Part shown: positions 29,348 through 56,811 of the stretch, one piece after another | Position numbering within the stretch: the first letter of the stretch is position 1 | Layout of the letters: each line of letters starts with the position of its first letter | Assembly: GCF_937425535.1 (NCBI RefSeq) | Contig: NZ_OW485601.1 | Location: 301,001 to 365,000 of the forward strand | Origin: Rhodovastum atsumiense | GTDB taxonomy: Bacteria > Pseudomonadota > Alphaproteobacteria > Acetobacterales > Acetobacteraceae | Direction: 5' to 3' | Length of the DNA: 64,000 nt | Made by a program: the position numbers and the translations under genes | The notes under the pieces: generated by a model | Database searches by the model: none | The model's input: only the letters and a program-made list of their open reading frames with translations | Told to the model about the DNA's origin: nothing

Positions 29348-30289
<942 letters not shown>

Positions 30290-30438: not shown

Positions 30439-33385
<2,947 letters not shown>

Positions 33386-42356: not shown

Positions 42357-43682
42357 TTACCCGGCAGCGTCCCAGGGAGCTGCGCTTCGAACCTGGATCC
42401 AGACGGGATTGTTCACCGACCGGTCGATGGCCGCAAGCAGGGCCAGCATGCCGCCATAGCCCGCCAGGGGCAGGCTGCGCTCATGATTGATCTCCAACCA
42501 TGGAATGCCGGCCTTCATGGCAACGAACTGGCTGTTGGCGCCGCCGAGCACGATGTCGGCTTCCCCCCGCCGCAACAAGGCATCCATGTCCTCGGCCTGC
42601 CATCCGTCGAACCGGGGTGTCGCCGTGCCGACCAGTTCGGTGACCTTTCTCCGGTCATCCTCGCTGGTTTTGCCGATCGCGGTGCCACTGACCACCATGC
42701 CGATCTCCTTGAGCATGCATGCCACCGACCACGTCTTCGCGCCGCCGCACAGTAGCATCGCCCGCCTGCCTGCCAGGCGGATGCGGTACCGGCCCAGCAC
42801 TTCGGCAATGCGACGTTCTTCCCGCGCGATCAGTGCTTCCGCCCGATGCGGCAGGTCACGGGGGACACCGCGTTCCACCAGCAGGTGCGACAGCTGCCGC
42901 AAGGTGGCAGCGATGTTGCCGGTGCCGTGGAAGCTGCCGTCGATGCAGGGAATGCCGAAATCGGCGTGCATCCGTTCCGCCAGATGCGCCAGCCCCTGCG
43001 AACACAGCAGCACCGCCGCCCGCGCCCGATGCGCCATGGCGATGTCATGCAGCCGGCCGTCACCGGTCAGGCTCGCCAGCACACGAATTCCCAACTGCGC
43101 GAGCAAGGGGCGAATCTGCGCCAGCTCATCCGCCAGATTGAACTCTCCGATCAGGACAATGTCGGCCTCCATGCAGCGATCGGGCTCGGCCGTGCCGATG
43201 ACATGCTCCATCAGGATTTCGGCGGCCCGATGCACGCCATAGGGCCGGCTGCCGGCAAAGCCGGGAACATCGACCGGAATCACCGGCCGGCCCCACCGAC
43301 GCGTCGCGTCCCGGCACACCGGCACGATGTCATCGCCGATCATCGCCGGCAGGCAGGTCTGATAGACGAAGACGGCCGGCGGATCGTGCCGGGCAATGAG
43401 CGCATCGATCGCCCGTGCCAGCTTCCGCTCGCCGCCGGCAATGGTGTCCCGCTCGGTAAACCCGGTCGTGAAGCTGACGCGATGCATTCGCGGGCCAGAG
43501 GAAAAGGTTGGACGAAACTGCCAGGACCCTGCCTCGCAGGAAGCCGGTCCATGCACCAGATGCGCCACATCGGCAATCGGCTGCAGCGCCATCTTGGCAC
43601 CGCGGAAAGCGCAGCCGCTCTGCCCCCGACCGGGGATGCGCCGGCAGCCACATCTTCGCGGGCCGGTCTCTGTCGCGCTCAT
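42357..43682 (-). CDS. Second NifE-like protein (nitrogenase component 1 family)
   Basis: The 441-residue product is a diverged NifE paralogue. It keeps a cysteine triad at C24 (SGCAFRGAK), C49 (GPASCEAGSW) and C110 (YQTCLPAMIGDD), plus a CGC near the start. Later blocks such as ADIVLIGEFNLADELAQI, LLCSQGLAHLAERM and VPW-type endings (GIPWLEINHERSLPLAGYGG) follow NifE order. VnfE already exists in the window, so this copy probably has another role. No NifN-like partner or reductase lies beside it. Start choice is uncertain (ATG 43682, or upstream GTGs to 43739). A sigma-54 promoter lies upstream. Confidence 0.83.
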   Translation of the reverse strand: MSATETGPRRCGCRRIPGRGQSGCAFRGAKMALQPIADVAHLVHGPASCEAGSWQFRPTFSSGPRMHRVSFTTGFTERDTIAGGERKLARAIDALIARHDPPAVFVYQTCLPAMIGDDIVPVCRDATRRWGRPVIPVDVPGFAGSRPYGVHRAAEILMEHVIGTAEPDRCMEADIVLIGEFNLADELAQIRPLLAQLGIRVLASLTGDGRLHDIAMAHRARAAVLLCSQGLAHLAERMHADFGIPCIDGSFHGTGNIAATLRQLSHLLVERGVPRDLPHRAEALIAREERRIAEVLGRYRIRLAGRRAMLLCGGAKTWSVACMLKEIGMVVSGTAIGKTSEDDRRKVTELVGTATPRFDGWQAEDMDALLRRGEADIVLGGANSQFVAMKAGIPWLEINHERSLPLAGYGGMLALLAAIDRSVNNPVWIQVRSAAPWDAAG

Positions 43683-43776
43683 GGGCCTGCGACCTGGCAG
43701 TACGGGCACATCTCGCTGCTCTCCTTGCTGATCGTCCACGCCTATGCGCGCTCATGCATCGAAGCAGGCAGCATCT

Positions 43777-43792
43777 TGCAACGTCCGGGCCA
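43777..43792 (-). promoter_or_regulatory. Sigma-54 promoter of the NifE-like gene
   Basis: TGGCCCGGACGTTGCA on the minus strand differs from consensus at one base (C for A in TGGCAC) and has GG and GC ten bases apart. It lies back to back with the next promoter, ten bases away. Confidence 0.72.
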
Positions 43793-43802
43793 GGCTGAAG
43801 CA

Positions 43803-43818
43803 TGGTACGTCGCTTGCA
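43803..43818 (+). promoter_or_regulatory. Sigma-54 promoter of the leader ORF and DUF2478-DUF364 gene
   Basis: TGGTACGTCGCTTGCA has one change from consensus (T for C in TGGCAC), a perfect TTGCA and correct spacing. Transcription should start near 43829, 36 bases before the 32-codon leader ORF. Confidence 0.75.
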
Positions 43819-43864
43819 TTTCCGGTATCATCTGCTGCGGTGGCGAGCATCAGGGAGCGCAACG

Positions 43865-43963
43865 ATGAACCTGCCCACCCTCTTTCCGTTGCCAACCGGG
43901 CCGTTCGCCGGCACGGGCCGTTCGTGCCGACCGGTCACCTCAGTGTCAGCACCCGCGCGATGA
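43865..43963 (+). CDS. 32-residue leader ORF coupled to the DUF2478-DUF364 gene
   Basis: The ATG at 43865 follows a good AGGGAG at a seven-base distance. The ORF encodes a short proline- and serine-rich basic peptide with one cysteine. Its TGA overlaps the next gene's ATG in ATGA, and that gene has no ribosome-binding site of its own, so translation of the leader should drive it. Whether the peptide has a function or only sets coupling is unknown. Confidence 0.55.
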   Translation: MNLPTLFPLPTGPFAGTGRSCRPVTSVSAPAR

Positions 43964-45213
43964 CCAATGTCATTGCCGGATACGCGCGTCCGGGTCCTGG
44001 TGCCGCGCGGGTGGCAGACCCCGCGACAACGGCCTTGGAAGCGGCGCGGTTGCCGTGGATCCGGCCGGGTGTCGTGGTACACGATCCGGCTGAGCTCGTG
44101 GATGATCTCCTTGCCGAGTTTGCCCTCGGCCTGCGCAGCCGCGGCTTCAACGTCGTCGGCTGCGTCCAGGACAATAATCGCGGCTCACTGCACAAAAGCC
44201 TCGGCTGCGCGCCCCGGATCGAGTACCGGGACCTCGGGACCGGCAGGACGCTCAAGGTCGACCGGCCCGGCGCGGTCGCGTATCTCCGCCAGGCGATGCA
44301 CGAGAAGGCGGACCTTCTCGTCATGAGCCACTTCGCCGCCTGCGCGGAGGCAACGGGAAGCGTCGGTGTCAACTTCGGATCCGATGTCACCTGCGGAATG
44401 CCGCTGCTGACCTCGATTGCCTGGCAATGCATCCAGCGATGGCATAGCTACGCGCGCCAGGACGGGGCGATGATCTCGCCGGATCTCGCCTCGCTCTGGG
44501 CCTGGTGGGGGCCGGAACGGCTATATCGCGACCTTGTGCTCGGGGTCACGGAAGCGCCTGTGCGGCGGATCGTCTGCGGCCCGCGCTGGCTCATGGTCGA
44601 AGGACCAGCCGGCGTCGGGCTCGCTGGCCTGCCATGCCATCCGCAGGAATTGCGGCCGCGCCTGCCACGCCTGGCGCGACGCAGCCTGCGCGAGCTCGCC
44701 GCCATGGCCGAATCCTGGGATCCGCTGGAAACAGCGCTTGGGATCGCCGCCATCAATGCGCATTACAACCGATACGATCTGGTGGCGAAGGCCGGCAACG
44801 GCGTGAAGGCGTTCCGGCGGATCACCGGACGCGTGGTCGTGCTCGGGGCCTTTCCCGGGATCGAGGGCATCCTGCCGAACTGCGCCCTGCTGGAGCCCGA
44901 TCCCCGGCCGGGGCGGTTTCCCGTCACCGCCCTGGACACCTTGCTGCCGGGCTGCGGGGCCGCGGTGATCAATGCCTCGACGCTGGTGAACCGGACCCTG
45001 CCGCGCATCCTGCGGCTGGCGCGCAACCGCCCGGTCGCCCTGATCGGGCCGGGAACGCCGATGACGCCGCGGCTTTACGAGTACGGCCTCGAGGTCCTGG
45101 GCAGTCTGGTGGTCAGTGATCCGGACGGGCTCGCGGCTGCCGTGCAGGCCGGAGCCACGGCGCGCGAATTTTCCCAGTACGGCCGCTTCGTCCATCTCGC
45201 CCGCGCCGGCTGA
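43960..45213 (+). CDS. DUF2478 domain fused to a DUF4213/DUF364 putative heavy-metal-chelation domain
   Basis: The 417-residue protein has two parts. Residues about 30-170 resemble DUF2478 (VDDLLAEFALGLRSRGFNVVGCVQDN, ADLLVMSHFAACAEATG), a nucleotidase-like domain often found near molybdate transport genes. Residues about 195-410 match the DUF4213-DUF364 pair (SWDPLETALGIAAINAHYNR, then AAVINASTLVNRTLPRIL and LIGPGTPMTPRLYEYGLEVLGSLVVSD), predicted to chelate heavy metals. Several cysteines and histidines are available. Position between nitrogenase genes and a TonB system suggests handling of imported metal, perhaps vanadium. This function is inferred. Confidence 0.8.
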   Translation: MTNVIAGYARPGPGAARVADPATTALEAARLPWIRPGVVVHDPAELVDDLLAEFALGLRSRGFNVVGCVQDNNRGSLHKSLGCAPRIEYRDLGTGRTLKVDRPGAVAYLRQAMHEKADLLVMSHFAACAEATGSVGVNFGSDVTCGMPLLTSIAWQCIQRWHSYARQDGAMISPDLASLWAWWGPERLYRDLVLGVTEAPVRRIVCGPRWLMVEGPAGVGLAGLPCHPQELRPRLPRLARRSLRELAAMAESWDPLETALGIAAINAHYNRYDLVAKAGNGVKAFRRITGRVVVLGAFPGIEGILPNCALLEPDPRPGRFPVTALDTLLPGCGAAVINASTLVNRTLPRILRLARNRPVALIGPGTPMTPRLYEYGLEVLGSLVVSDPDGLAAAVQAGATAREFSQYGRFVHLARAG

Positions 45214-45297
45214 ATCGCCCCCCCGCGCCGCATCAAGGCTGGAACAGGATGCGACCGAGGCGTCGCGCCTTGCGCGAGAGGCGTTGGCAGATGCCGC

Positions 45298-45326
45298 TTC
45301 GTCATATATTTATAGTATATGACGAA
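45298..45326. promoter_or_regulatory. ModE-like molybdenum-box palindrome
   Basis: TTCGTCATATA and TATATGACGAA are perfect 11-base complements separated by seven bases. The layout (CG, then an alternating TATA-type arm, a 6-7-base spacer and the mirror arm) resembles the Mo-box bound by ModE-type regulators. It lies between the DUF364 gene and the TonB receptor and may make the uptake operon respond to molybdate. Confidence 0.6.
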
Positions 45327-45424
45327 TGTGAATCGTGGGGTGTGCCCCCCGATCGGGACTGGGTCGAAGGCATCCCCTGCTACAGGCAGCGAGGTTGGGG
45401 CTTGTACAATTTTGTGAGAATTCC

Positions 45425-45459
45425 TTGAGGCTCACCTCATGAAATGAGGTGAGCCTCAA
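45425..45459. terminator. Perfect 16-bp hairpin in the TonB-receptor leader
   Basis: TTGAGGCTCACCTCAT pairs perfectly with 45444-45459 around the triloop GAA. A run of five A follows on the plus strand, so it is not a clear intrinsic terminator in the receptor direction. It may end upstream transcription, or act in the leader RNA. Confidence 0.5.
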
Positions 45460-45749
45460 AAAGCATTGTACCATTGCGTGCAAACAAAGTTGCCGAACAA
45501 ATTATTCCAAATGCCACTTGACGCTTATTAAAATCTCGACATGATTCCCGTAATTCAGGCGTGCAAACCAATTTTGTTTTGCATTCCGGCAAAAATGGGC
45601 ACCGCGTTGAACCGGATCGGTGCAACGTGCCGGGATCGTTGACCGAGATTTCGCTGGTTGCTCGCAAACGGGTCGTGCGGAGGGGGCTGCCGTCATTGTC
45701 CAATCCCGAGCCGGCAGGACGTGCCGGCACGCCCGCCTGGAGCGCCGCG

Positions 45750-47930
45750 ATGGTTCCAAAGGTCCTTCTCTTTCCCGGCTCCGCCTTGCTGGGAGGGGTC
45801 ATTTTTGCCGCCCCGATGCTGGCCGTCGCCCCGGCCCACGCCGATGACGCCGAGGCAACCGTCGCCGTTCCGCCGGTCGTCGTCACCGGTCAGCGGACCG
45901 AGGCCGACGGCAGTGCTGCCGACGGTTACCGCAGTTCGAGCGCGACACTGGGGCCGCTGGGCAAGGCCCCGCTGCAGGACACGCCCTATTCGATCAACGT
46001 CACCCCGGGCGCACTGATCGAACGACAGGCGGCGCACACCCTCGCCGATGCGCTGAAGACCAACCCGACCGTGGCACCGCTGCTGAACGCCAACAGCGCC
46101 TTCACCATGTCACGCGTGATGGTCCGCGGCTTCACCGCCGCCGACCAGAACGAGCTGCGCGACGGCCTGGTCGACCGCAGCTTCACCCTGCCACCGATGG
46201 AAATCGTCGACCGGATCGAAGTGCTGAACGGCATGTCCGGCTTCCTCTACGGGTTCTCGGCCCCGGGCGGCCTGATCAACTACATCAGCAAGCGACCGAC
46301 GGAACAGACGCTCCTCGACCTCTCCAGCGGCGTCTACAATGGCAGCGTGGCCTATGTGCACGGCGATGCCGGTGGCCGGGTGCCCGGCACCGATGGACGG
46401 CTGGGCTACCGCTTCAATGCCTATCAGGAAGCAGGCAGCACCGTGATCGATGGCAGCCAGCAGCGCCGCAGCCTGGTGTCGCTGTCGCTGTCCTACGAAG
46501 TCCGACCCAACACGACGGTGTGGTTCGATGTCTGGCATCAGGACATGCAGACCAACGGCCTGCCGACCACGTTCGATGCGCCGAACGGCAACTGGTCGGG
46601 CACCGGCACCGCGGTGCCCTCGGCCTCGGCGTTCCGGGCCAACCGGCAATACGGCCAGGACTGGACCTTCAACAAATCCAGCAAGACGCTCGCGGGCGTC
46701 GGGCTTGATTCGAAGCTGAACGACATCTTCACCCTGCGCGCTGCCATGCGGTACGGCTACATGTGGCGCAAATATGCCTATGTCGATGCGATCCTGCAGG
46801 GCAACACCGGCAACTACCTGGAACGGGCCAATTTCGATTCGCAGCAGACCGAACGTACCGAATCCGCCTATGCGCTGATGGATGCCGCCTTCGACACCGG
46901 CCCGCTGCGCCACGAGGCCACCTTCGGCTACACCCATACCCGCTTCTTCTACGAACGCGCGCCGGAGGTCCAAAGCATCCTCGGCCTGTCGAACATCGAC
47001 AATCCGGTCAGCTTCGCCCAGCCCTCCGTCAGCTTCGCCCCCAACAACAACTTCCAGCGCGTGACGTGGGACAATTTCGTGGTCGCCGACCGGGTCTCGG
47101 TCGGCCCCTATGTCTCTCTGCTGCTCGGCGCCACGGCCGCGACGCTGCAGCAGAATGCCTGGGGCAGCGGCAGCGCCATCAGCACATCCAATTATCGCGC
47201 CCAGCAGGTCACCCCGAGCGTCGGCATCACAGTCAAGCCGATCCCGGAACTCTCGCTGTACGCGTCGTACATCCAGGGGCTGCAGGCCGGCGACAGCACC
47301 ACCAGCAGCGCCGCGGTGAACCGCAACCAGGTTCTCGCGCCGAGCGTCAGCAATCAGTACGAAGTCGGCGCCAAGACAACCATCGGGCGGCTGGGCATCA
47401 ACCTCGCGTTGTTCCGTATCGATAAGGTCAATGCCGAGATCGATCCCGCCGATAGCGTCTACAAGCAGGACGGGCGCGAGATCCACCAGGGCATCGAACT
47501 GGTGACGACCGGGCGTGTCAACGATTCCCTCGCCGTGGTCGGCGGCTTTACGCTGATGGATGCCTTCATCTCCAAGGCTTCGGCGGTGCCGGCCAGCGAA
47601 GGCAAGACCCCGATCAACGTACCGGAGCAGCAGGCCCGCCTCTACCTGGAATACACCGTGCCGGGCCTGCCCGACCTGACGCTGAGCGGCGGCATGAACT
47701 ATTACGGTAAGCGGCCGCTGGATACGCTCAACACCGCGTACCTGCCGGCGGCGACCACGTTCGATGCCGGCCTGCGCTACAGCCCCGAAATCGCCGGTCA
47801 TCGCGTCAGCGCCACGCTGAATGCCTTCAACCTCTTCGACCGCTCCTACTGGATGTATTACCGCAGTGGCGACGGGCTGCTGCTCGGCGCGGGCCGCACC
47901 ATCACCTTCACGCTGAAGGCCTCGCTGTGA
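45750..47930 (+). CDS. TonB-dependent outer-membrane receptor, siderophore-type
   Basis: From ATG 45750 the 726-residue protein has a signal peptide ending AHA-DD and a likely TonB box (PPVVVTGQR). A plug domain (about 70-190, with DTPYSINVTPGALIERQ and MVRGFTAADQNELRDGL) and a 22-strand barrel end in FTLKASL. It resembles FhuA/FoxA-like receptors for ferric hydroxamates or other metal chelates. It should move a metal complex into the periplasm using the TonB-ExbBD encoded nearby. The frame to 45561 would place the signal peptide internally and was rejected. It overlaps the permease gene. Confidence 0.9.
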   Translation: MVPKVLLFPGSALLGGVIFAAPMLAVAPAHADDAEATVAVPPVVVTGQRTEADGSAADGYRSSSATLGPLGKAPLQDTPYSINVTPGALIERQAAHTLADALKTNPTVAPLLNANSAFTMSRVMVRGFTAADQNELRDGLVDRSFTLPPMEIVDRIEVLNGMSGFLYGFSAPGGLINYISKRPTEQTLLDLSSGVYNGSVAYVHGDAGGRVPGTDGRLGYRFNAYQEAGSTVIDGSQQRRSLVSLSLSYEVRPNTTVWFDVWHQDMQTNGLPTTFDAPNGNWSGTGTAVPSASAFRANRQYGQDWTFNKSSKTLAGVGLDSKLNDIFTLRAAMRYGYMWRKYAYVDAILQGNTGNYLERANFDSQQTERTESAYALMDAAFDTGPLRHEATFGYTHTRFFYERAPEVQSILGLSNIDNPVSFAQPSVSFAPNNNFQRVTWDNFVVADRVSVGPYVSLLLGATAATLQQNAWGSGSAISTSNYRAQQVTPSVGITVKPIPELSLYASYIQGLQAGDSTTSSAAVNRNQVLAPSVSNQYEVGAKTTIGRLGINLALFRIDKVNAEIDPADSVYKQDGREIHQGIELVTTGRVNDSLAVVGGFTLMDAFISKASAVPASEGKTPINVPEQQARLYLEYTVPGLPDLTLSGGMNYYGKRPLDTLNTAYLPAATTFDAGLRYSPEIAGHRVSATLNAFNLFDRSYWMYYRSGDGLLLGAGRTITFTLKASL

Positions 47931-48973
47931 GCCTCCCTGCCCTCACCACGCCACGCACCGGGACCGTGGTGAAGGCGGTGCTGCTGTTTGGGCTGCTGCC
48001 TCTGCTGGTGGCATTCCTGTCGCTGCTGATCGGGCGTTACCCGCTTGCACCGGATGCGGTGCTGACCGCGCTGGGCCGGCATCTGTTCGGGTCAGGCCAG
48101 ACCACGCCGGATGCGGCCGAGGTGGTGGTGGTCACCATCCGGCTGCCGCGGATCGCCGCGGCGCTGCTGGTCGGGGCGGCGCTGGCAACCGCGGGAGCGG
48201 CATTCCAGGGCATCTTCCGCAATCCGCTGGTCTCCCCGGATATTCTCGGCGTCGCGGCGGGGGCCGGATTCGGGGCGGCGCTGGCGATCCTGCTCGGGGC
48301 GGGGCCGGTGGGGATCCAGGCGGCAGCCTTTGGCGGCGGGTTGCTGGCGGTGACAACGACCTGGTTGATCACCCGCTGGCACGCCGGCGAAGGTGATGCG
48401 GTGCTGGTGCTGATCCTCGCCGGGGTCATCGTCGGCACGGTGTTCTCGGCGCTGATAGCGCTGGTGAAGTTCGTGGCCGATCCCAACAACGTCCTGCCTG
48501 TCATCACCTTTTGGTTGATGGGCAGCCTGGCGGCAGTCAGCGGGCGTGACCTGCTGGCGGCAGGGCTGCCGGTCGGCGCCGGGCTGGCATGTCTCCTGCT
48601 GCTGCGCTGGCGGCTGAACCTGCTGGCATTCGGCGACGAGGAAGCCCGGGCGCTGGGCGTGGAAGTGGAACGGCTGCGCTTCGCTGTGGTGGTCGGCGCC
48701 ACGCTGATGACCGCGGCGGCGGTGGCCATCAGCGGCGTGATCGGGTTGGTCGGGCTGGTGGTGCCACACGTGACGCGATTGCTGGTGGGACCGGACCATC
48801 GGGTGCTGCTGCCCGCGGCCGCGGTGATGGGCGGCACCTTCCTGTTGCTGGTCGACGACGTCGCGCGCAGCCTGGTCGCTGCGGAGATCCCGCTCGGCAT
48901 CCTGACCTCCCTGATCGGGGCCCCCTTCTTCCTGTCGTTGCTGGGCCGTGCCCGCAACGGGGGAGCAGCCTGA
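47927..48973 (+). CDS. FecCD-type ABC permease for metal chelates
   Basis: The 348-residue protein starts at a GTG overlapping the receptor stop (GTGA). It has about nine membrane segments and family motifs RLPRIAAALLVGAALATAGAAFQGIFRNPLVSPDILG in outline, and GEEARALGV-like FGDEEARALGVEVERLR in the ATPase-contacting loop, with GLVVPHVTRLLVGPDHR later. It forms the inner-membrane channel with the following ATPase and binding protein. The tight overlaps imply one operon. Confidence 0.92.
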   Translation: MSLPALTTPRTGTVVKAVLLFGLLPLLVAFLSLLIGRYPLAPDAVLTALGRHLFGSGQTTPDAAEVVVVTIRLPRIAAALLVGAALATAGAAFQGIFRNPLVSPDILGVAAGAGFGAALAILLGAGPVGIQAAAFGGGLLAVTTTWLITRWHAGEGDAVLVLILAGVIVGTVFSALIALVKFVADPNNVLPVITFWLMGSLAAVSGRDLLAAGLPVGAGLACLLLLRWRLNLLAFGDEEARALGVEVERLRFAVVVGATLMTAAAVAISGVIGLVGLVVPHVTRLLVGPDHRVLLPAAAVMGGTFLLLVDDVARSLVAAEIPLGILTSLIGAPFFLSLLGRARNGGAA

Positions 48974-48974
48974 C

Positions 48975-49772
48975 ATGTCCGCCCCCTTGCTGTCGGTGGA
49001 AGGACTGACCTGCGGCTACCGGGGAAAGGCGGTCACAGCGGCGGCCACCTTCTCGGTCGCGGCCGAGGAATGGCTGTTCCTGCTGGGACCGAATGGCGCA
49101 GGCAAGACCACGCTGTTCAAGACCATCCTGCGACTCTTGCCCCCGCTGGGCGGGCGCATCCGCCTCGGCGGCGAGGATGTCGCGTCATGGCCGGCCCGCC
49201 GCTTCGCCGCCCGTGTCGGCTACGTGCCGCAGGCGCACCGCCCCCCTTTTCCGTTTCGCGTGCACGAGGTGGTCGCGATGGGACGGGCCGCGCATCTCGG
49301 TCCCTTTGCCACGCCCGGCGCGCGCGACCGTACCATCGCCGAGCAGGTGCTGGCCGATCTCGGCATCCATGGCCTGCGCAACGCGGCCTATACCACGCTC
49401 AGCGGCGGTGAACGGCAGTTGGTGCTGATCGCCCGGGCCCTGGCGCAGGAGCCGATGGTGCTGGTCATGGACGAGCCCACGGCCAATCTCGATTTCGGCA
49501 ACCAGATCCGCGTGCTGGCGCATGTGCAGACCCTGGTGGCGCGCACCGGCCTCGGCGTGCTGATGACGAGCCACGATCCCAACCAGGCATTGCTGCACGC
49601 GCATCGGGTCGCCGCCCTCGGGCGGGACGGCCGGTTGCAGGTTGGCTCGGCCTCGGAGATCGTGACCCGCACCTGGCTGCGGCGCACCTACGACGTCGAT
49701 GTCTCCGTGGCCGAGTTGCCGCGTGCCGACGGCACGGTCGCGCGGCTTTGTGTTCCGATGACGACGCCATGA
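48975..49772 (+). CDS. ABC transporter ATP-binding protein for metal chelates
   Basis: The 265-residue ATPase has GPNGAGKTT (Walker A), TLSGGERQL (signature) and MVLVMDEPTANLD (Walker B), as in FepC/BtuD partners of FecCD permeases. ATG 48975 is next to the permease stop. Its stop overlaps the binding-protein start in ATGA. It would power import of the chelate recognised by that protein. Confidence 0.92.
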   Translation: MSAPLLSVEGLTCGYRGKAVTAAATFSVAAEEWLFLLGPNGAGKTTLFKTILRLLPPLGGRIRLGGEDVASWPARRFAARVGYVPQAHRPPFPFRVHEVVAMGRAAHLGPFATPGARDRTIAEQVLADLGIHGLRNAAYTTLSGGERQLVLIARALAQEPMVLVMDEPTANLDFGNQIRVLAHVQTLVARTGLGVLMTSHDPNQALLHAHRVAALGRDGRLQVGSASEIVTRTWLRRTYDVDVSVAELPRADGTVARLCVPMTTP

Positions 49773-50887
49773 AGCCACAGGTGCAGGATAAAGCCATCTT
49801 CTCGCGGCACGGGCGAAGCCGGCGTGCCGCACGAAGCATGGGCGCGACCCTGGGGGCCCTGCTGGCCCTGGCCTGTTGCGGTACAGCCGCCGCCCGCAGC
49901 GTCATCGACATGGCCGGCCGCAGCGTCGAGCTGCCCGCCCAGGTCCGCCGCGTCGCCTGCCTGGAAGTGCTGTGCTACCCGCGCGTGTTCATGCTCGGGG
50001 CGGAGGCACGGATCGGGCTGATGTACGACACCGCCGCTCCCTGGATGGTGGCCACCAATCCGCAGGTCCGTTCTATCCCCCGCATGGTGGGTGAGCCCAA
50101 CGTCGAGGAACTGCTGGCCCGCGGCATCGACACGGCCTTCGTCTTCTACGATGCGGGCCGGGTGGTGCCGAAGCTGGCGACAGTCGGCATTGCGGCCCTG
50201 GTCTCGCAGCCCGTCGGCCCGCCGCCAGCGACGGCCGAGGCCTTCATTGCCGACACCATGCGCGCGGTGCGGCTGTTCGGCCAGGTGCTGGGCGGCGAGG
50301 CGGAAGCACGCGCCGAGGAATGGTGCCGTATTTTCGAAACTCGCATCCGCCGGGTGCTGGCGCGCACGGCGGACATTCCCGCCGCGCAGCGCCCGCGACT
50401 TTATTACGTGCGCGGCCCGCAGGCGGTGAACACCCAGGGACGCGGTTCCTACACCTACTGGAGCGGCACGATCGCAGGGGCCTCGATGATTGCCGGTGCC
50501 CTGCCGCTGGCCGGGCGCGGCAGCATGGCAATGGAGGACATCCTGCGTTGGGACCCACAGGTGGTGCTGGTCGGCCGGCAATATCCGCTGGCGCTGGTAC
50601 AGGGCGACCCACGCTGGGCCGATGTCACGGCGGTGCGGGAAGGCCGGGTGCTGTCGACGCCGGAAGGCGTGTTCTACTGGGACGGTGGCCCGGAGAGTGC
50701 CCTGCTGCTGACCGAGTTCATCGCCCGCTTGCTGTATCCGGATCGTTTCCCCGATCTCGACATGCGCGCCGAGGTGCAGGAGTACTATGCCCGCTTCTAC
50801 CGCACCCGGCTCGACGATGCCGCCGTTGGCCGGTTGCTGCGCGGCGAAGCGCCCGATGGCAGCCGGCACAATCCTTTCAACAACTGA
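49769..50887 (+). CDS. Periplasmic binding protein of the metal-chelate transporter
   Basis: The 372-residue protein has a basic N-terminus with RSRRAARS before a hydrophobic stretch ending TAAARS, so it is exported, perhaps by Tat. The mature part is of the FepB/BtuF type: VIDMAGRSVELPAQVRRVACLEV, GEPNVEELLARGIDTAFVF and EDILRWDPQVVLVG. Such proteins capture siderophore, corrinoid or heme-like ligands; this ligand is unknown. It follows the ATPase with a four-base overlap. Confidence 0.88.
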   Translation: MKPQVQDKAIFSRHGRSRRAARSMGATLGALLALACCGTAAARSVIDMAGRSVELPAQVRRVACLEVLCYPRVFMLGAEARIGLMYDTAAPWMVATNPQVRSIPRMVGEPNVEELLARGIDTAFVFYDAGRVVPKLATVGIAALVSQPVGPPPATAEAFIADTMRAVRLFGQVLGGEAEARAEEWCRIFETRIRRVLARTADIPAAQRPRLYYVRGPQAVNTQGRGSYTYWSGTIAGASMIAGALPLAGRGSMAMEDILRWDPQVVLVGRQYPLALVQGDPRWADVTAVREGRVLSTPEGVFYWDGGPESALLLTEFIARLLYPDRFPDLDMRAEVQEYYARFYRTRLDDAAVGRLLRGEAPDGSRHNPFNN

Positions 50888-50925
50888 TGTCGCGGCGATG
50901 ACCATCCCGGGAGACCTGCCGATCG

Positions 50926-51560
50926 ATGCCCACCCTTGATCTGTCCCTGAGCGGAATGCTGATGCAGACCACCGGCCCGGTGCGGGCGGTGCTCGTGCTG
51001 CTGCTGGTCTGCTCGGTGCTGTGCTGGGCGATCATCTTCGAGAAAGTCACGCGGCTGATCCGGCTGCAACGGGAGGCGCGCGGCTTCGAACGCCTGGTGC
51101 GCAGCCAGGACGCCCCGGTTCCTTCCACCGGCCTTGCCACCACGCTGCTGGCGACAGCGGCCATGGAAACGGGGCGCCGCCCGGCCGGCGAGACACTGGC
51201 GGAACGACGCGAGCGCATCGAACGCACACTGCGCGAGTCCGTGGCCGCGGCGCTGCTGCCGGTCGAGACACGGCTGCCGGTGCTGGCGACGATCGGTTCG
51301 GCAGCGCCGTTCATTGGCCTGTTCGGCACGGTCTGGGGCATCATGCACGCCTTCGCCGGGCTGGCGCAGGCCGGCGACAGCAGCCTTGCCGCCGTCGCGC
51401 CCGGCATCGCCGAGGCGCTCTCCACCACCGCCATCGGCCTTGCCGCCGCGCTGCCGGCCTCGATTGCCTACAACATGCTGGCCGGCAGCCTCGGCATGCT
51501 GGCAAGGCGGCTGGGGCTGGCGGTGGCGGCGCTGGCGCGGCAATCGGCGGAGGCGGCCGC

Positions 51561-51564
<4 letters not shown>
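50926..51564 (+). CDS. exbB: ExbB-type proton channel subunit
   Basis: The 212-residue protein belongs to the MotA/TolQ/ExbB family. It has three membrane segments (AVLVLLLVCSVLCWAIIFEK; TIGSAAPFIGLFGTVWGIMHAF; ALSTTAIGLAAALPASIAYNML) and the GLFGTVWGI pore motif. With ExbD it uses proton motive force to energise TonB. Its stop overlaps the exbD start in ATGA. Confidence 0.9.
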
Positions 51565-51983
<419 letters not shown>

Positions 51984-51988
51984 CGCCG

Positions 51989-52801
51989 ATGTCCCGGGGA
52001 GAGGGCTGGGCACTGCTGGCCTCGGGGCTGCTGCATGCGGGCCTGCTCGGAACCTGGCTGGCCCTGGCGGCGCCGGCCCCGAAGCCGGCACGTACGACCC
52101 TGGTCGAACTGGCCCCGTCGCAGCAGGAGCCAACCCCGCCGGCGTCCCCCGCCGCGGAGCCGGACCCGGCACCGCTCCCATCCGCGGTACCTCCCCCTGC
52201 CCCCCCGGAACCACCGCCCGTCGTGACATCGCCGGAGCCTCCGCCACCAGCCTCCGTGGAACCTGCTGTCACGCCGCCGCCGGAGCCGGAACCTCCGCCC
52301 TCCATCGATGAGCCCCCCCTGCCCACGCCGCCGCCACTGATCGCCAGCACGAGCGCAGCCGCCCCCGTGGCCCCCGTGCAGCGGCCGCGCCCACGACCGC
52401 CGCGCCGACAGGAAGGCCCGCCCGCCATGCCCGCCACCACGCCGATTGCCGCGCCGGCAGGCCCCTCCCAGCCGCAGGCGGCCGGCACGCCGGCGGCGCC
52501 GCCCCACCCCCCTGCCGACTATATCGGCCGGATCCAGGCGCGGCTGCTGGCCGTGAAGCGCTACCCGGCCGAGGCCCGCGCCCGCGGCGAAGAAGGCACA
52601 GTACTGCTTCGCTTCGTCCTGGCCGCCGATGGCGAAGTGCTGTCGGCGCGTGTCATCCGTAGTTCAGGCGTGACCTCGCTGGATACGGAAGGCCTCGCCA
52701 TGATCGCGCGCGCGGCCCCGTTTCCGCCGCTCCCCGACGAGCTGCGTGCCACACCGCTTGCCCTTGCCGTGCCGGTGACATTCTCGCTACGCAGCCGCTG
52801 A
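51989..52801 (+). CDS. tonB: TonB energy-transducing protein
   Basis: The 270-residue protein has one N-terminal membrane anchor (GWALLASGLLHAGLLGTWLAL) including the histidine usual in this segment. A long proline-rich periplasmic spacer (about 40-165) follows, then a C-terminal TonB domain (YPAEARARGEEGTVLLRFVLAADGEVLSARVIRSSG). It spans the periplasm to contact the receptor's TonB box. A dedicated TonB-ExbBD set encoded beside one receptor implies specialised uptake. Confidence 0.9.
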   Translation: MSRGEGWALLASGLLHAGLLGTWLALAAPAPKPARTTLVELAPSQQEPTPPASPAAEPDPAPLPSAVPPPAPPEPPPVVTSPEPPPPASVEPAVTPPPEPEPPPSIDEPPLPTPPPLIASTSAAAPVAPVQRPRPRPPRRQEGPPAMPATTPIAAPAGPSQPQAAGTPAAPPHPPADYIGRIQARLLAVKRYPAEARARGEEGTVLLRFVLAADGEVLSARVIRSSGVTSLDTEGLAMIARAAPFPPLPDELRATPLALAVPVTFSLRSR

Positions 52802-52857
52802 CGACACTGGCCGGGCGCTTTGACTGCATTTTCTTCCTCCGCTGGAGGCTTCGCATC

Positions 52858-53880
52858 ATGGCATCACCGCCTCTGCTCTGGCCCGCCGCCCCACAGGACA
52901 CGCGCATCCTGTATCTGGCACGCTTCGCGCCGGACGACCCGATCTACACGGTCAAGCCGGAGGGCATCACCCACGGCTATGCCGAGTACCATTTCCGCCT
53001 CTACGAGGCCCTGCGCAACATCGGCTATCGCGTCGCCTCCAGCTCGAAGCCCTATGCGGCGCTGATGGCGGGCGGCAATGTCGATTTCGTTTTCTCGTTG
53101 CTCAACCGGATGCCCTTGCGCAATCCGGAGTTGCTGGTTCCATCGATCTGCACCTATCTGCGCCTGCCCTGTCTCGGGGCACCGCCCAATATCCGCGCGC
53201 TGGCCGAAGACAAGTATCTCAGCAAGCTGGCCTTCTCCGCGCTCGGCCTGCCGGTGGCGCCAGGGCGGGCGTATCTGCCGGGGGCGGAACTGTCACCGCC
53301 GGATTTCCCCGGCCCCTATTTCGTCAAGGATCGCTTCGGCGCCGCCTCCGAAGGCGTGACCGAGGCCTCGCTGCAGGACAGTTGGGAAGGTGCGGCACGG
53401 ATTGTCGGGACCTTCCATACCGCCGGAAAGGAAGCGCTGGTGGAGCGGTTCTGTCCGGGCATCGACGTCACCGTGCCGGTGCTCGGCCATTCGCCCTATC
53501 TGGTGCTTGGGCATGTCGCGCCGCGCTCGGACAAGCCCGGCAGCATCCTCACCGCCGATCTCAAGACCGATGACCGGCTGGGCAACGATCTGATCGAACT
53601 TGGTGCCGGCACCGAAGCGGCGATCGCAGACGATGTGCGAAAGGTGTGGTCCTCGCTCGGACCGATCGACTATTTCCGCCTGGATTACCGGTGGGACCCG
53701 GCGACAGGACAGCGCTTCCTGATCGAGATGAACATTTGCTGCTACCTGGGCATCCGCGGGGCGATCGGACTGGCCGGCAAGGCCCTGGGATATGACCGCA
53801 CGCAGATCCTGGCGCATGTCGTCGAGTACAGCCTGGCCCGCCAACGTGGCGCCCACGCCCATGATGCCTGGGTGATCTGA
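52858..53880 (+). CDS. ATP-grasp ligase, D-alanine-D-alanine-ligase-like
   Basis: The 340-residue protein has the D-Ala-D-Ala-ligase-type order: an N-terminal Rossmann-like part, PCLGAPPNIRALAEDKYLSK, then GPYFVKDRFGAASEGVTEA (ATP-binding lysine and glycine loop) and IDYFRLDYRWDPATGQRFLIEMNICCYLG holding metal-binding D, E and N. It makes an amide or peptide-like bond from a carboxylate. Cell-wall ligase seems unlikely in this setting. It may build or modify a small chelator, or modify a cofactor. It starts 57 bases after tonB. Confidence 0.78.
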   Translation: MASPPLLWPAAPQDTRILYLARFAPDDPIYTVKPEGITHGYAEYHFRLYEALRNIGYRVASSSKPYAALMAGGNVDFVFSLLNRMPLRNPELLVPSICTYLRLPCLGAPPNIRALAEDKYLSKLAFSALGLPVAPGRAYLPGAELSPPDFPGPYFVKDRFGAASEGVTEASLQDSWEGAARIVGTFHTAGKEALVERFCPGIDVTVPVLGHSPYLVLGHVAPRSDKPGSILTADLKTDDRLGNDLIELGAGTEAAIADDVRKVWSSLGPIDYFRLDYRWDPATGQRFLIEMNICCYLGIRGAIGLAGKALGYDRTQILAHVVEYSLARQRGAHAHDAWVI

Positions 53881-54050
53881 GGGCCGCGCGGCGAAGGTAC
53901 GCGGCCGTACGTTCGGCTGTACAATGTTCGGATTCGTGCAGCCGGAATCCCGTGCGGCCGCGGTTCCGGCTGCCCCATGCCCTGGCACGTTTCTTGATGG
54001 GTCCGTGGTGCAGACAGCCTTGCACCCCGCCACATCCTGGATCCCGGGCC

Positions 54051-55088
54051 ATGCTGCACAGCCGGCTGACACTTCTCGACGACGGCATTCCCGCGGCCGC
54101 CATCCGTGCCACCGCGCCGCGCCTGTCCACGCTCGACTTCCTCGGGCGCATGCCGGTACCGTTGCGCCATGGCTTTGCCGCCGGGCTGGAACGCGCGGCC
54201 GCGGCCGCCGGCGGGCGGCGGATCTGCTTCCTCATGGGCCATGAATGGTACGCCCCGTTTGATGACATGTTACGCGCCGGGCCGCTTTCCGGCGTTCCGC
54301 ATCTCGTGGTGTCGCCCTTCACCCGTGACCTGCTGTCGCCGCCATTCCAGCAGTTTCTGCGCGCGGCGGGGCACTGTGCCGGCCCCGCCGCGCCGGTGCA
54401 TCCGGCAGTCGCCGAGGCCGGCCTCGTCGATCCCGAAGGTCTGTTCTCGGTGTTCGCCGTCATTCCCTGGGTATTCCTGATCGACCTGCGCAAGCTGGCC
54501 GGGCGGGCGGTGCCGCGGCGGTGGGAAGACCTGCTGGATCCGGCGTATCACCGCCAGATCGTGTTCGGCGGCTGGCGGCGCCCCAGTGACGGTACCTATC
54601 CCGACTGCAACGACTTCCTGCTGCTGACCCTGCATCGCCGCTTCGGGGTCGCCGGCCTGCGTGCCTTCGCAGCCAACACACGTGCCATCCTGCACAACAC
54701 CGCGGCGGCGCGTTTTGCCGGTACCGGCAGCGAACAAGGCGGGGCGATCTCCATCCTGCCCTGGATGCAGGCCGACATGTGCCCCCATCGCGACCGCACC
54801 ATGGTGGTCTGGCCAGAAGACGGAGCCATGACGATGCCCATCGGTTCTTCGGTTTCCGGCGATCACCGGGGCTGGGTGCAGCCCCTGATCGACTATCTCT
54901 CCGGGGATGCCCTGGGACGGTTCCTGGCCCAAAATCGCTACCCTCCCACCTCCGGGCAAATCCCGCAGGTGCTGCCGCCTGGCGCGAAGCTGCACTGGAT
55001 CGGCTGGGACTACACCCGCTCGCATGACATGACTGAGGAAACCAACGTCGCCATGCGGATCTTCTTCGACGCCTGGGATGCCGGCTGA
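54051..55088 (+). CDS. ABC substrate-binding-like protein without signal peptide
   Basis: The 345-residue protein has features of iron/spermidine-type binding proteins (PRRWEDLLDPAYHRQIVFGG, GGAISILPWMQADM, GWVQPLIDYLSGDALGRFLAQN). It lacks any hydrophobic export signal at MLHSRLTLLDDG or in upstream starts, so it should stay in the cytoplasm. It overlaps the GTPase gene. A cytoplasmic binding-protein fold next to a GTPase and an orphan ATPase suggests holding a metal or cofactor inside the cell. The function is not known to me. Confidence 0.75.
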   Translation: MLHSRLTLLDDGIPAAAIRATAPRLSTLDFLGRMPVPLRHGFAAGLERAAAAAGGRRICFLMGHEWYAPFDDMLRAGPLSGVPHLVVSPFTRDLLSPPFQQFLRAAGHCAGPAAPVHPAVAEAGLVDPEGLFSVFAVIPWVFLIDLRKLAGRAVPRRWEDLLDPAYHRQIVFGGWRRPSDGTYPDCNDFLLLTLHRRFGVAGLRAFAANTRAILHNTAAARFAGTGSEQGGAISILPWMQADMCPHRDRTMVVWPEDGAMTMPIGSSVSGDHRGWVQPLIDYLSGDALGRFLAQNRYPPTSGQIPQVLPPGAKLHWIGWDYTRSHDMTEETNVAMRIFFDAWDAG

Positions 55089-55783
55089 TGCGCGTGGTCA
55101 CGGTTGCCGGGCCGCCCTCGGTCGGCAAGACATCGCTGTTCCTCAAGGTCGCGGCCCGGCTGCGCGACGATGGCATCCAGGTCGGCGTGGTGAAGTTCGA
55201 CGCGCTCTCCACCACCGATGACGAGGCTTATGCCGCGCTCGGCCTGCCGGTGCAGACGGGGCTCTCGCGCGGAATCTGCCCGGACCATTTCTTTGTCAGC
55301 AACATTGATGATTGCCTCGCCTGGGGCCATCGCGCGGGCTGCGACGTGTTGCTGGTGGAAACGGCCGGGCTGTGCAACCGCTGCTCGCCGCATATCCGTG
55401 GCGTGCTGGCGGTCTGCGTGGTGGACAACCTCGCCGGCATCCACACGCCGCGCAAGATCGGGCCGATGCTCCGCCTCGCCGATGTCGTGGCCATCACCAA
55501 GGGCGACATCGTCTCCCAGGCCGAACGCGAGGTCTTCGCCTACAATGTGCGGCTTGCCAACCCGCGTGCCCCGGTGGTGTGGTGCAACGGCATCACTGGC
55601 CAGGGCGCGGTCGACCTGGCCTTCCGCATCCGCTCCGCCCCGCGCATCGAGACGCTGGAAGGACAGCATCTGCGCTTCTCCATGCCCTCCGCGATCTGCC
55701 CTTACTGCGTCGGCGAAACCGCGATCGGGGAGACGTACCAGCGCGGCAATGTCCGCAAGATGACCTTCGGGGAAACCCCATGA
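55088..55783 (+). CDS. HypB/UreG-like SIMIBI GTPase with cysteine motifs
   Basis: The 231-residue protein has the P-loop GPPSVGKTS at 8-16 and VLLVETAGLCNRCSPH, where C96 and C99 follow the Walker-B-like region as metal-binding candidates. C64 and a late CPYC add further sites. VVAITKGDIVSQ gives the base-recognition region (TKxD). Such GTPases insert nickel or cobalt into enzymes or handle metal centres. Here it may load a metal or cofactor in a nitrogenase-related pathway. It overlaps both neighbours by one to four bases. Confidence 0.82.
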   Translation: MRVVTVAGPPSVGKTSLFLKVAARLRDDGIQVGVVKFDALSTTDDEAYAALGLPVQTGLSRGICPDHFFVSNIDDCLAWGHRAGCDVLLVETAGLCNRCSPHIRGVLAVCVVDNLAGIHTPRKIGPMLRLADVVAITKGDIVSQAEREVFAYNVRLANPRAPVVWCNGITGQGAVDLAFRIRSAPRIETLEGQHLRFSMPSAICPYCVGETAIGETYQRGNVRKMTFGETP

Positions 55784-56811
55784 TGCCGGACCTGCCGACC
55801 TCCCTCGGTCAACCGTTGGGACGGCTGCTGCAGGCATCGCCGCGCATCGCTGCCTTCCTCGACGGGCTGGGCTTTGGCGAGCTGCCGACGGACCTGCCGG
55901 CAGAGCTGTGGATCGCGCGCCTGCCACAGGCGACGCTGTTGGATGTGGGCCTCGATCGCGAACAACTCGCCGGCCATCTGCGGCTTCTGCTGGAGTCCGC
56001 CGCCGCGCCGCCCGATGCCATGCAGGAAGCCATCCACACGTTGACCATCCGCGGCGGACACGGCAAGGACGGGACGGAGGAACCCACGGATCTCGTCATC
56101 CGGGCCGGCGAGATCGTCTGCGTCGTCGGGCCCACCGGCGCGGGCAAGAGCCGCCTGCTCGCCGACGTGGAATGCCTGGCCCAGGGCGATAGCCCAAGCG
56201 GGCGCCAGGTGCTGCTGAACGACGCCGCGCCGACCGCGGACCTGCGCTTCGCCTCCGACCGCAAGCTGGTCGCGCAGATCTCCCAGAACATGAACTTCGT
56301 CGTCGATCTCAGCGTGGGTGACTTCCTGGCCATGCATGCGGCCTGCCGGCAGGTGGATGCGGGCAGCGACGTGGTCGAGCGCATCATCGCCGTTGCCAAC
56401 ACGCTGGCCGGAGAACGTTTCGGCCCAGGAGTATCCCTGACCCAGCTAAGCGGTGGCCAGGCCCGGGCCCTGATGATCGCCGATGCCGCGCTGCTGACCG
56501 CCTCGCCGATCGTGCTGATCGACGAGATCGAGAATGCCGGCATCAACCGTCGCCAGGCGCTGGACCTGCTGGTCGCGCGCGACAAGATCGTGCTGGTTTC
56601 CACCCACGATCCCCTGCTGGCGCTGATGGGCCAGCGCCGCGTGGTGGTCCGTCAGGGGCGCATCGCCGAGGTGATCAGCACCAGCGACGCCGAACGTCAG
56701 GTGCTGCGCCGGCTTGAGCAGGTCGATTCGACGCTGGCCTCGCTGCGCGACCGGCTGCGCCGGGGGGAGCGGATCGAGGATCCTGCCGAAGCATCGTTTG
56801 CGTGGTTGTGA
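55780..56811 (+). CDS. ABC-type ATPase with N-terminal extension, no permease partner
   Basis: The 343-residue protein has about 100 unrecognised residues (SPRIAAFLDGLGFGELPTDLP) and then an ABC ATPase with GPTGAGKSRLL, LTQLSGGQARALM and IVLIDEIENAG. The Walker B is followed by E-N rather than the usual transporter pattern. No permease gene is adjacent, so a soluble role, as in UvrA-like or cofactor-insertion ATPases, is likely. It forms a coupled trio with the GTPase and the binding-like protein. Confidence 0.82.
   Translation: MMPDLPTSLGQPLGRLLQASPRIAAFLDGLGFGELPTDLPAELWIARLPQATLLDVGLDREQLAGHLRLLLESAAAPPDAMQEAIHTLTIRGGHGKDGTEEPTDLVIRAGEIVCVVGPTGAGKSRLLADVECLAQGDSPSGRQVLLNDAAPTADLRFASDRKLVAQISQNMNFVVDLSVGDFLAMHAACRQVDAGSDVVERIIAVANTLAGERFGPGVSLTQLSGGQARALMIADAALLTASPIVLIDEIENAGINRRQALDLLVARDKIVLVSTHDPLLALMGQRRVVVRQGRIAEVISTSDAERQVLRRLEQVDSTLASLRDRLRRGERIEDPAEASFAWL

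What the first reader, a model, noticed from the sequence alone, without database searches (positions are those of the whole stretch)
42357..56811. Metal acquisition and handling island attached to a vanadium nitrogenase cluster
Directly after vnfENX and a NifU-like gene come a second NifE-like gene and a DUF2478-heavy-metal-chelation fusion. These are followed by a complete, overlapping uptake set (TonB receptor, FecCD permease, ATPase, binding protein, own ExbB-ExbD-TonB), an ATP-grasp ligase, and a coupled trio of signal-less binding protein, HypB/UreG-like GTPase and orphan ABC ATPase. The first two genes have sigma-54 promoters like the vnf genes and the receptor has a ModE-like box. Together they could import a vanadium (or molybdenum) chelate and deliver the metal to cofactor assembly. 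The gene order is seen; the metal is inferred. I know of no described system with this composition.
Basis: partly seen in the sequence, partly recalled or inferred. Interest (0 to 1): 0.92.

Follow-up and report, generated by a model that had tools for sequence, protein, structure and literature searches.

The report
Vanadium supply genes beside vanadium nitrogenase
Next to the genes for a vanadium-using nitrogen-fixing enzyme, this bacterium carries genes that look made to pull in a scarce metal and hand it on inside the cell; parts of the set follow the vanadium enzyme across many bacteria, so they are good candidates for its missing metal supply line.

Summary
Beyond vnfENX lie a NifE-like gene (minus strand), a DUF2478-DUF364 fusion, a TonB receptor, a FecCD-type importer, ExbB-ExbD-TonB, an ATP-grasp ligase, and a coupled trio: signal-less binding protein, G3E GTPase, soluble ABC ATPase.

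Best explanation: a vanadium (possibly molybdenum) acquisition and handling locus for V-nitrogenase. The window-type GTPase is in 44 of 59 vnf genomes (six cyanobacteria, Bacillota, Methanothrix set aside), but in 2 of 289 genomes of the class sample, both with vnf; 7 other nifD genomes there lack it. The importer's closest solved relatives are HI1471/HI1472 (molybdate MolB/MolA). A strong ModE-like box precedes the receptor; sigma-54-like sites precede the first two genes.

Not wholly new: in Azotobacter the trio operon and TonB/ABC operons are published VnfA1 targets of unknown function. New here: the linked arrangement, fusion and ATP-grasp partners, mutually exclusive ATP-grasp and GCS2 ligases, and a vnf-only GTPase clade with two extra Cys/His.

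Against: the fusion also occurs away from vnf; some Bacillota trios sit by hybrid-cluster-protein-like genes; 15 of 59 vnf genomes lack the GTPase; the TonB/Fec set is rare. The metal is inferred.

The parts
42357..43739 (-). NifE-like scaffold protein (start probably near 43682)
   Evidence: PF00148 303 bits; TIGR01283 469 bits, below cut-off 505; four Cys that line up with NifE cysteines in the GC, GPxxC, YxTC and CS motifs are kept
43777..43792 (-). sigma-54 promoter-like site of the NifE-like gene
   Evidence: 1 mismatch to TGGCACRNNNNTTGCW
43803..43818 (+). sigma-54 promoter-like site of the fusion gene
   Evidence: 1 mismatch; at this stringency 6 found in 26-64 kb against 0.48 expected
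43960..45213 (+). DUF2478-DUF4213-DUF364 fusion (longest ORF from 43744)
   Evidence: Pfam; model matches DUF364 structures 3l5o, 3npg
45298..45326 (.). ModE-like palindromic box upstream of the receptor
   Evidence: 5 of 22 mismatches; next best in 26-64 kb has 8; shuffles 8-11
45425..45459 (.). 35-bp perfect palindrome between ModE-like box and receptor; function unknown
   Evidence: read from sequence
45561..47930 (+). TonB-dependent siderophore-type receptor
   Evidence: TIGR01783 249.4 bits over cut-off 223.5
47927..48973 (+). FecCD-type permease, closest solved relative HI1471
   Evidence: Pfam; HI1471 238 bits, next 178
48948..49772 (+). ABC ATPase of the importer
   Evidence: best solved relatives FhuC 122, DppD 119, HI1470 117 bits
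49748..50887 (+). Periplasmic binding protein, closest solved relative HI_1472
   Evidence: PF01497; HI_1472 87 bits, next 59
50926..51564 (+). ExbB
   Evidence: PF01618
51561..51983 (+). ExbD (domain from about 51606; start uncertain)
   Evidence: PF02472 94 bits
51980..52801 (+). TonB (C-terminal domain; start uncertain)
   Evidence: PF03544 61 bits
52858..53880 (+). ATP-grasp ligase, D-Ala-D-Ala-ligase-like
   Evidence: orthologues beside vnf
53897..53939 (.). Two VnfA1-type sites (53897 exact, 53926 one mismatch), 29 bp apart like the two one-mismatch sites before vnfE (38345 and 38374)
   Evidence: motif from PMC9542535
54051..55088 (+). Signal-less binding protein of ferric-binding-protein fold (longest ORF from 53952)
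   Evidence: PF13343; alignment; fold
55088..55783 (+). G3E (HypB/UreG-like) GTPase
   Evidence: PF02492; C64, H67, C96, C99, C204, C207 in all 98 relatives aligned
55780..56811 (+). Soluble ABC-type ATPase without a permease
   Evidence: PF00005; next to the GTPase in relatives

Best explanation
A vanadium acquisition and intracellular handling locus serving the adjacent V-nitrogenase. Proposed working: when molybdenum is scarce, ModE-type repression of the receptor operon is lifted; the TonB receptor, powered by its own ExbB-ExbD-TonB, takes up a vanadium (or molybdenum) chelate or oxyanion; a MolBCA-like ABC importer brings it into the cytoplasm. There the signal-less binding protein holds the metal, and the G3E GTPase and soluble ATPase drive its release to the VnfEN cofactor scaffold, a role like that of NifQ for molybdenum. 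The ATP-grasp enzyme (in other lineages a GCS2 ligase) makes a small peptide-like ligand for the metal; the DUF2478-DUF364 fusion and the NifE-like protein are metal- or precursor-holding accessories. Shown: gene content, order, promoter-like sites, coupling of the GTPase and trio to vnf, closest relatives. Inferred: the metal, the ligand, direction of transfer and every protein-protein step.
For: Trio follows vnf: window-type GTPase (66% identity or more) in 44 of 59 vnf genomes, six cyanobacteria, six Bacillota and two Methanothrix set aside; in 26 of the 44 it lies within about 22 kb of vnfD on the same contig (hand count; contigs matched by length). Controls: 2 of 289 in the class sample (own and G291, both vnf); the same request (taken to be the same draw) found nifD in 9 of 289, the 7 others lacking the GTPase; 2 of 398 in the phylum sample at that identity; 1 of 5 anf genomes, at 47% only. 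One clade of 44 rows, all from vnf genomes, SH-aLRT 99 in a quick tree, with Cys76 (98% against 24%) and His102 (100% against 30%) marking it. Regulation: sigma-54 sites, VnfA1-type sites before the trio, ModE-like box; in 45 distinct stretches upstream of the binding protein, window included, 15 hold an exact VnfA1 site (background 4.7%) and 18 a sigma-54 site with up to two mismatches (background 7.1%). Published: the Azotobacter trio operon is VnfA1-dependent; TonB/ABC operons switch on when Mo and V are both absent. Importer closest to HI1471/HI1472 in the PDB. In Rhodopila globiformis a different ExbB/TonB/receptor/Fec set (29-46% identity) sits directly before ATP-grasp (81%) and trio (68-87%), a few genes from vnfK.
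Against: 15 of 59 vnf genomes gave no GTPase at E 1e-20 (13 are MAGs by title, and in one the contig ends inside the trio, but Methylobacter oryzae and Azospirillum sp. TSO22-1 are not MAGs), nor did 6 of 6 cyanobacteria. GTPase relatives occur in 40 of 299 genomes of the Clostridium phylum, 20 of them at 52-61%, not tested for vnf; of 25 such loci 7 have a hybrid-cluster-protein-like gene and 8 a FecB gene nearby, so the family's basic job need not concern vanadium. The receptor is of siderophore type, which usually means iron. The fusion occurs away from vnf. The own genome also has a VodA-like binding protein elsewhere, so the TonB set is not its only candidate route. Single VnfA1 sites with up to one mismatch are no commoner than in shuffles (32 against 38.9). 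No clean sigma-54 site was found before the receptor or the trio in the window. The two sigma-54 sites of fusion and NifE-like gene are only 10 bp apart, so one may be chance.
Confidence: 0.62

Rival explanations
1. Iron supply: the TonB/Fec set imports a ferric siderophore to meet the iron demand of the alternative nitrogenase, and the trio handles iron or iron-sulfur precursors.
For: Receptor scores over the siderophore-receptor cut-off; the trio binding protein's best folds are ferric-binding proteins; 7 of 25 Bacillota/Fusobacterium loci have a hybrid-cluster-protein-like gene; two of the clade-3 relatives read lie beside a cysteine-desulfurase-like gene (L179, L187).
Against: The 7 nif-only genomes of the sample lack the GTPase, as do 4 of 5 anf genomes, though they need much iron too; importer closest to HI1471/HI1472; ModE-like control is indicated (a Fur box was not searched for). 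In Azotobacter the matching operons respond to Mo and V.
Confidence: 0.2
2. Sensing: the trio is a cytoplasmic vanadium sensor that sets VnfA activity, as VnfZ (a signal-less relative of the transport protein VodA) does for VnfA3 in Azotobacter.
For: Published precedent of a cytoplasmic binding-protein paralogue acting on VnfA3 (passages); the trio shares the vnf regulon.
Against: The binding protein falls in SBP_bac_6, the VodA-like proteins in Phosphonate-bd; GTPase and ATPase are not needed for a simple sensor; G3E GTPases are known as metal inserters (established knowledge).
Confidence: 0.1
3. The locus is for molybdenum scavenging under Mo starvation, placed by vnf only because both are switched on without Mo.
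For: Importer closest to HI1471/HI1472 and ModE-like box; Azotobacter modABC2 is VnfA1-dependent.
Against: The GTPase follows vnf, not nif. The TonB/Fec set alone could still be for molybdenum.
Confidence: 0.08

Closest known systems
Azotobacter vinelandii VnfA1 regulon operon Avin_02430-02390 (PMC9542535; sections 2.2 and 2.3 read, other passages)
   Same: Binding protein, GTPase, ABC ATPase in this order; near vnf; VnfA1-type sites. The CA-strain GTPase is 68% identical; its match to these locus tags is mine, by composition and place.
   Different: Azotobacter ends with nitroreductase and glutamate-cysteine ligase; the window has an ATP-grasp ligase before the trio and no member of those two clusters. 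The TonB operons are elsewhere in Azotobacter, linked here.
Azotobacter class B VnfA1 targets: TonB receptor/ABC operons, one ending in NifD-like Avin_39870 (PMC9542535)
   Same: TonB receptor, ABC importer and a nitrogenase-like protein together, Mo/V-responsive
   Different: No close relative of the window NifE-like protein in A. vinelandii: its best hits (43%) lie at what I take, by position, for NifE and VnfE
Haemophilus influenzae MolBCA (HI1470-1472), type II molybdate importer
   Same: Best solved relative of permease and binding protein
   Different: Here with TonB receptor, own ExbBD-TonB and nitrogenase genes; substrate unknown. MolBC-A as molybdate importer from an abstract in a listing (PMC4031551); the HI number to Mol name match is recalled
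VupABC (Anabaena) and VodABC (Azotobacter) vanadate transporters
   Same: Vanadate supply near vnf genes (passages); Vod is a prediction
   Different: Other ABC types, no TonB receptor. VodA-like proteins in the fetched stretches of 38 of 59 genomes; own copy unlinked

Membership tests
VnfA1-dependent SBP-GTPase-ABC operon (Avin_02430 type) | three genes in this order, GTPase in the vnf-linked clade | tested here: met
VnfA1-dependent SBP-GTPase-ABC operon (Avin_02430 type) | VnfA1 sites upstream | tested here: met
   exact site 53897 plus 53926; sequence match only
VnfA1-dependent SBP-GTPase-ABC operon (Avin_02430 type) | sigma-54 promoter upstream | tested here: inconclusive
   TGGCACGTTTCTTGAT lacks the -12 GC (sequence printed); not counted by the scan
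VnfA1-dependent SBP-GTPase-ABC operon (Avin_02430 type) | nitroreductase and glutamate-cysteine ligase at the end | tested here: not met
   no window member of either cluster; ATP-grasp instead
VnfA1-dependent SBP-GTPase-ABC operon (Avin_02430 type) | expression depends on VnfA | not testable with these tools
   needs a mutant
MolBCA molybdate importer | permease and binding protein closest to HI1471/HI1472 | tested here: met
   238 and 87 bits, next 178 and 59; among solved structures only
MolBCA molybdate importer | transports molybdate | not testable with these tools
   needs uptake assay
HypB or UreG | curated score | tested here: not met
   hypB 34.5 of 121.2, ureG 23.2 of 204.2 bits
G3E metal GTPases (cobW/HypB/UreG, PF02492) | family domain and conserved cysteines | tested here: met
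   35.5 bits, cut-off 20.7; C64, C96, C99, C204, C207 conserved in 98 of 98
NifE | curated nifE score | tested here: not met
   469.1 of 505.1 bits
NifE | cluster-ligand cysteines | tested here: met
   four aligned Cys kept; their role as ligands is recalled
TonB-dependent siderophore receptor TIGR01783 | curated score | tested here: met
   249.4 over 223.5

The most novel reading that the evidence does not exclude
The trio with its ligase is the missing vanadium donor of V-nitrogenase, the counterpart of NifQ: a cytoplasmic binding protein of periplasmic fold, a G3E GTPase and a soluble ABC ATPase form an NTP-driven metal hand-over, fed by a peptide-like ligand made by interchangeable ligases (ATP-grasp or GCS2). 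Clade-2 and clade-3 relatives would be a wider, unnamed class of NTP-driven cofactor-metal delivery machines, including ones for hybrid-cluster protein.
Probability: 0.33. Interest if true: 0.88.

Novelty: new variant of a known kind. Interest (0 to 1): 0.66.

Why it matters
How vanadium reaches the VnfEN scaffold, and how most V-fixing Proteobacteria acquire it, is not known to me; in 2014 Vup was called the only characterised vanadate transporter (passage, PMC4284476). The locus gives a defined gene set with testable roles at each step. It also points to a family of linked binding-protein/GTPase/ATPase trios that recurs in Bacillota, Fusobacterium and, as a GTPase-ATPase pair, Methanothrix; the one literature search aimed at it listed no study of it. 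For engineering V-nitrogenase in new hosts, a dedicated metal donor would be a needed part.

Tried and rejected
Rejected: the fusion as a V-specific marker (orphan paralogue, Azospirillum copies). Rejected: the TonB set as a replacement for VodABC (own VodA-like gene at C1:4635400, 74% identical to that of L066; both occur together in 5 of the 6 receptor-bearing genomes). Rejected: a terminator reading of the 35-bp palindrome (no T-run after it on either strand). Rfam: no match in the window. Literature for DUF364/DUF2478 and for a trio linked to hybrid cluster protein gave nothing useful in the listings. In the alignment two rows (labelled Avin_VnfE and Mful_nifE2) were wrong ORFs and were ignored; a third (L054) is cut by the end of its stretch. 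The plus-strand ORFs tested first for the NifE-like gene gave no family. ORF g29288, used as a vnfH marker, is the antisense frame of vnfH. Addo & Dos Santos 2020, cited for conservation of the operon, is not held and was not read. Presence counts use fetched stretches only, with identity thresholds of my own (for example fusion 45%, receptor 45%, FecCD 55%, GTPase 62%), so they are lower bounds; Fisher tests ignore shared ancestry, and ATP-grasp versus GCS2 may partly follow lineage. The 80 VnfD loci are the best 80 of 97 found; the other 17 were not seen. 78 of the 80 handles were searched for the GTPase; I left out L058 (same genome as L052) and L106 (same as L099). The 59 include one MAG titled a cyanobacterium (L077) whose VnfD is 83% identical to the window's and whose GTPase hit is split. 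Class and phylum samples are unnamed; I take them for Alphaproteobacteria and Pseudomonadota.
Full report
What is there. The window is G000:C1:301001-365000 of a 7.4 Mb genome whose nearest kin by GTPase are Rhodopila globiformis and three uncultured Rhodopila (87-88%). It carries vnfH (29348-30238, minus; placed by homology), vnfD, vnfG (33053-33382), vnfK, vnfA, vnfE, vnfN, vnfX and a NifU-like gene up to 42088. A NifE-like gene follows on the minus strand, then, on the plus strand, the DUF2478-DUF4213-DUF364 fusion, TonB receptor, FecCD permease, ATPase, binding protein, ExbB, ExbD, TonB, ATP-grasp ligase, signal-less binding protein, GTPase and ABC ATPase.

Control elements. With at most one mismatch to the sigma-54 consensus, 26-64 kb holds six sites against 0.48 expected: by position at vnfH, vnfD, vnfA, vnfE, the NifE-like gene and the fusion. 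The last two are divergent and only 10 bp apart. Before the trio, two VnfA1-type sites 29 bp apart match the spacing of two one-mismatch sites at vnfE (motif from PMC9542535); a -24/-12-like element there lacks the -12 GC. Taken singly, VnfA1 sites with up to one mismatch are not enriched (32 against 38.9 in shuffles). In 45 distinct stretches upstream of the binding-protein gene, window included, 18 have a sigma-54 site with up to two mismatches (background 7.1%) and 15 an exact VnfA1 site (background 4.7%). Before the receptor lies TTCGTCATATA-N7-TATATGACGAA, a palindrome with 5 of 22 mismatches to the ModE consensus (recalled); no other site in 26-64 kb has fewer than 8, and shuffles give 8-11. 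With that consensus and the window's own box as patterns, 23 sites appear in 2.38 Mb of fetched loci and none in 0.39 Mb shuffled; six of them lie just before vnfA (L050, L054, L061, L085, L087, L121), which supports the method.

Co-occurrence. A scan of named genomes with VnfD gave 97 relatives, the best 80 kept: 75 vnf and 5 anf loci (sorted by identity, 70% or more against 57-59%). Island genes recur in their flanks. Genome-wide, the GTPase at 66% identity or more is in 44 of 59 vnf genomes once six cyanobacteria, six Bacillota and two Methanothrix are set aside. Those gave: cyanobacteria 0 of 6; Bacillota 5 of 6 at 53-57% and 1 at 36%; Methanothrix 2 of 2 at 41-43%. Anf genomes: 1 of 5, at 47%. 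Random controls: 2 of 289 in the class sample, both vnf-bearing (own and G291, whose vnf cluster is seen and which is the genome of L051); the same request found nifD in 9 of 289, so 7 nif genomes lack the GTPase. In the phylum sample, 4 of 398: the same two, and two at 37-38%. A quick tree of 98 GTPases puts 44 rows, all from vnf genomes, in one clade (SH-aLRT 99). All 98 keep C64, H67, C96, C99, C204 and C207; Cys76 (98% against 24%) and His102 (100% against 30%) mark the vnf clade. The vnf rows were chosen through VnfD, so the random samples, not the tree, carry the specificity claim.

Partners. In stretches fetched for the 59 genomes: GTPase 43, binding protein 42, ABC 42, VodA-like 38, fusion 22, ATP-grasp 22, nitroreductase 18, GCS2 ligase 12, FecCD 8, receptor 6, NifE-like 3 (lower bounds). 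ATP-grasp and GCS2 never occur together (0 both, 22, 12, 25 neither; Fisher p 0.002), and fusion with ATP-grasp co-occur (18 both, 4, 4, 33; p 6e-8) (ancestry not corrected). Two different bond-forming ligases in the same setting suggest a shared small product; that is inference. In Rhodopila globiformis an ExbB/TonB/receptor/Fec set only 29-46% identical to the window's lies directly before ATP-grasp (81%), binding protein (68%), GTPase (87%) and ABC (72%), a few genes from vnfK. Two unlike importers in one slot argue for a functional link between importer and trio. Of 29 vnf-clade GTPase-centred stretches 9 have a FecCD, FecB or receptor relative, of 28 clade-2 stretches 12, of 18 control stretches 0 (controls are of mixed origin). 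Three Magnetospirillum genomes (L050, L054, L201) carry receptor, FecCD, ATPase, binding protein and NifE-like gene as one run; the NifE-like gene is cut by the stretch end in L050 and L054 and matches in two pieces in L201.

Proteins. The permease and binding protein are closest, among solved structures, to HI1471 and HI_1472, the MolB and MolA of a molybdate importer (names recalled; MolBC-A abstract of PMC4031551 in the listing). The trio binding protein, modelled from 11 sequences (pLDDT 80), has the fold of ferric-binding proteins such as FutA and KfuA (TM about 0.55); near its strand end are invariant Pro-Trp and a Cys, with no tyrosine pair visible, so iron binding by the classical ligands is doubtful (ligands recalled, not aligned). 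The fusion, modelled from 12 sequences (pLDDT 79), matches in its C-terminal part DUF364 structures of unknown function, 3l5o and 3npg; a weaker match is an NTPase, 2i3b. The NifE-like protein keeps the aligned NifE cysteines.

Wider family. The own genome has two more GTPases (58% and 38%). The 58% one lies in a receptor-FecB-SBP-GTPase-ABC run; in A. vinelandii the like FecB-SBP-GTPase-ABC run (L184) is probably the Avin_00450 operon, a VnfA1 target (matched by position only). In the phylum of Clostridium sp. LS 40 of 299 genomes have a relative, 20 at 52-61% and 20 at 32-41%. In 25 loci examined (20 from that sample, 4 from vnf genomes, 1 Fusobacterium), 7 carry a hybrid-cluster-protein-like gene nearby and 8 FecB-type proteins (the first family named by reading its sequence). 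So the trio type is general and one clade is dedicated to vnf.

Known or new. PMC9542535 (sections 2.2 and 2.3 read, further passages; supplement not seen) shows that the A. vinelandii operon Avin_02430-02390 is VnfA1-dependent and states that, but for its last gene, it is conserved in V-nitrogenase Proteobacteria, citing a paper not held here; function unknown. It also reports TonB/ABC operons activated only without Mo and V, one with a NifD-like gene. A search of the held library for six of these locus tags found that paper alone. Other searches listed no functional study of the set among the titles and abstracts shown; the library lacks most subscription journals. Hence: a new, linked and extended variant of a partly described but functionally unexplained regulon.

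Verdict. Vanadium acquisition and handling is the best reading (0.62). The specific claim that the trio is the vanadium donor is plausible and untested.

Noticed in passing
window 30439-31332 (-): NifX-type (Nitro_FeMo-Co) domain fused to a glyoxalase domain, between vnfH and vnfD; its cluster is found in 25 of 60 genomes, own included.
   Followed up: partly
window 34816-35781 (+): Gene after vnfK without any Pfam match, its cluster in 46 of 60 genomes.
   Followed up: no
window 45425-45459: 35-bp perfect palindrome between the ModE-like box and the receptor gene; not a terminator by its sequence, operator unknown to me.
   Followed up: partly
L264-L283, L046 (Bacillota and Fusobacterium trios): SBP-GTPase-ABC trios, 7 of 25 loci with a hybrid-cluster-protein-like gene and 7 with a CRP-like gene; the binding protein has an N-terminal extension that looks like DUF1858 (names by eye).
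   Followed up: partly
L187 (Pararhodospirillum), L179 (own genome), L231: GTPase-ABC pair with a CGxCG iron-sulfur-like protein, and in L179 and L187 also a NifS-like gene; in L187 next to a nitrogenase-like operon (names by eye).
   Followed up: no
own genome C1:3485146-3486303: Orphan paralogue of the fusion, 66% identical, no nif or vnf gene matched by the window set within about 18 kb.
   Followed up: partly
window 58118-60198 (+): UPF0261 and phosphoenolpyruvate-hydrolase-like gene pair.
   Followed up: no
window 6175-20584: Lower-GC polysaccharide island with glycosyltransferases, an exporter and another ATP-grasp protein; transposase-type genes at 576-1472, 2958-5009 and 7781-8365.
   Followed up: no
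window 24548-27511: ABC ATPase-permease fusion (621 aa) next to an NlpA lipoprotein, resembling a methionine-type importer.
   Followed up: no
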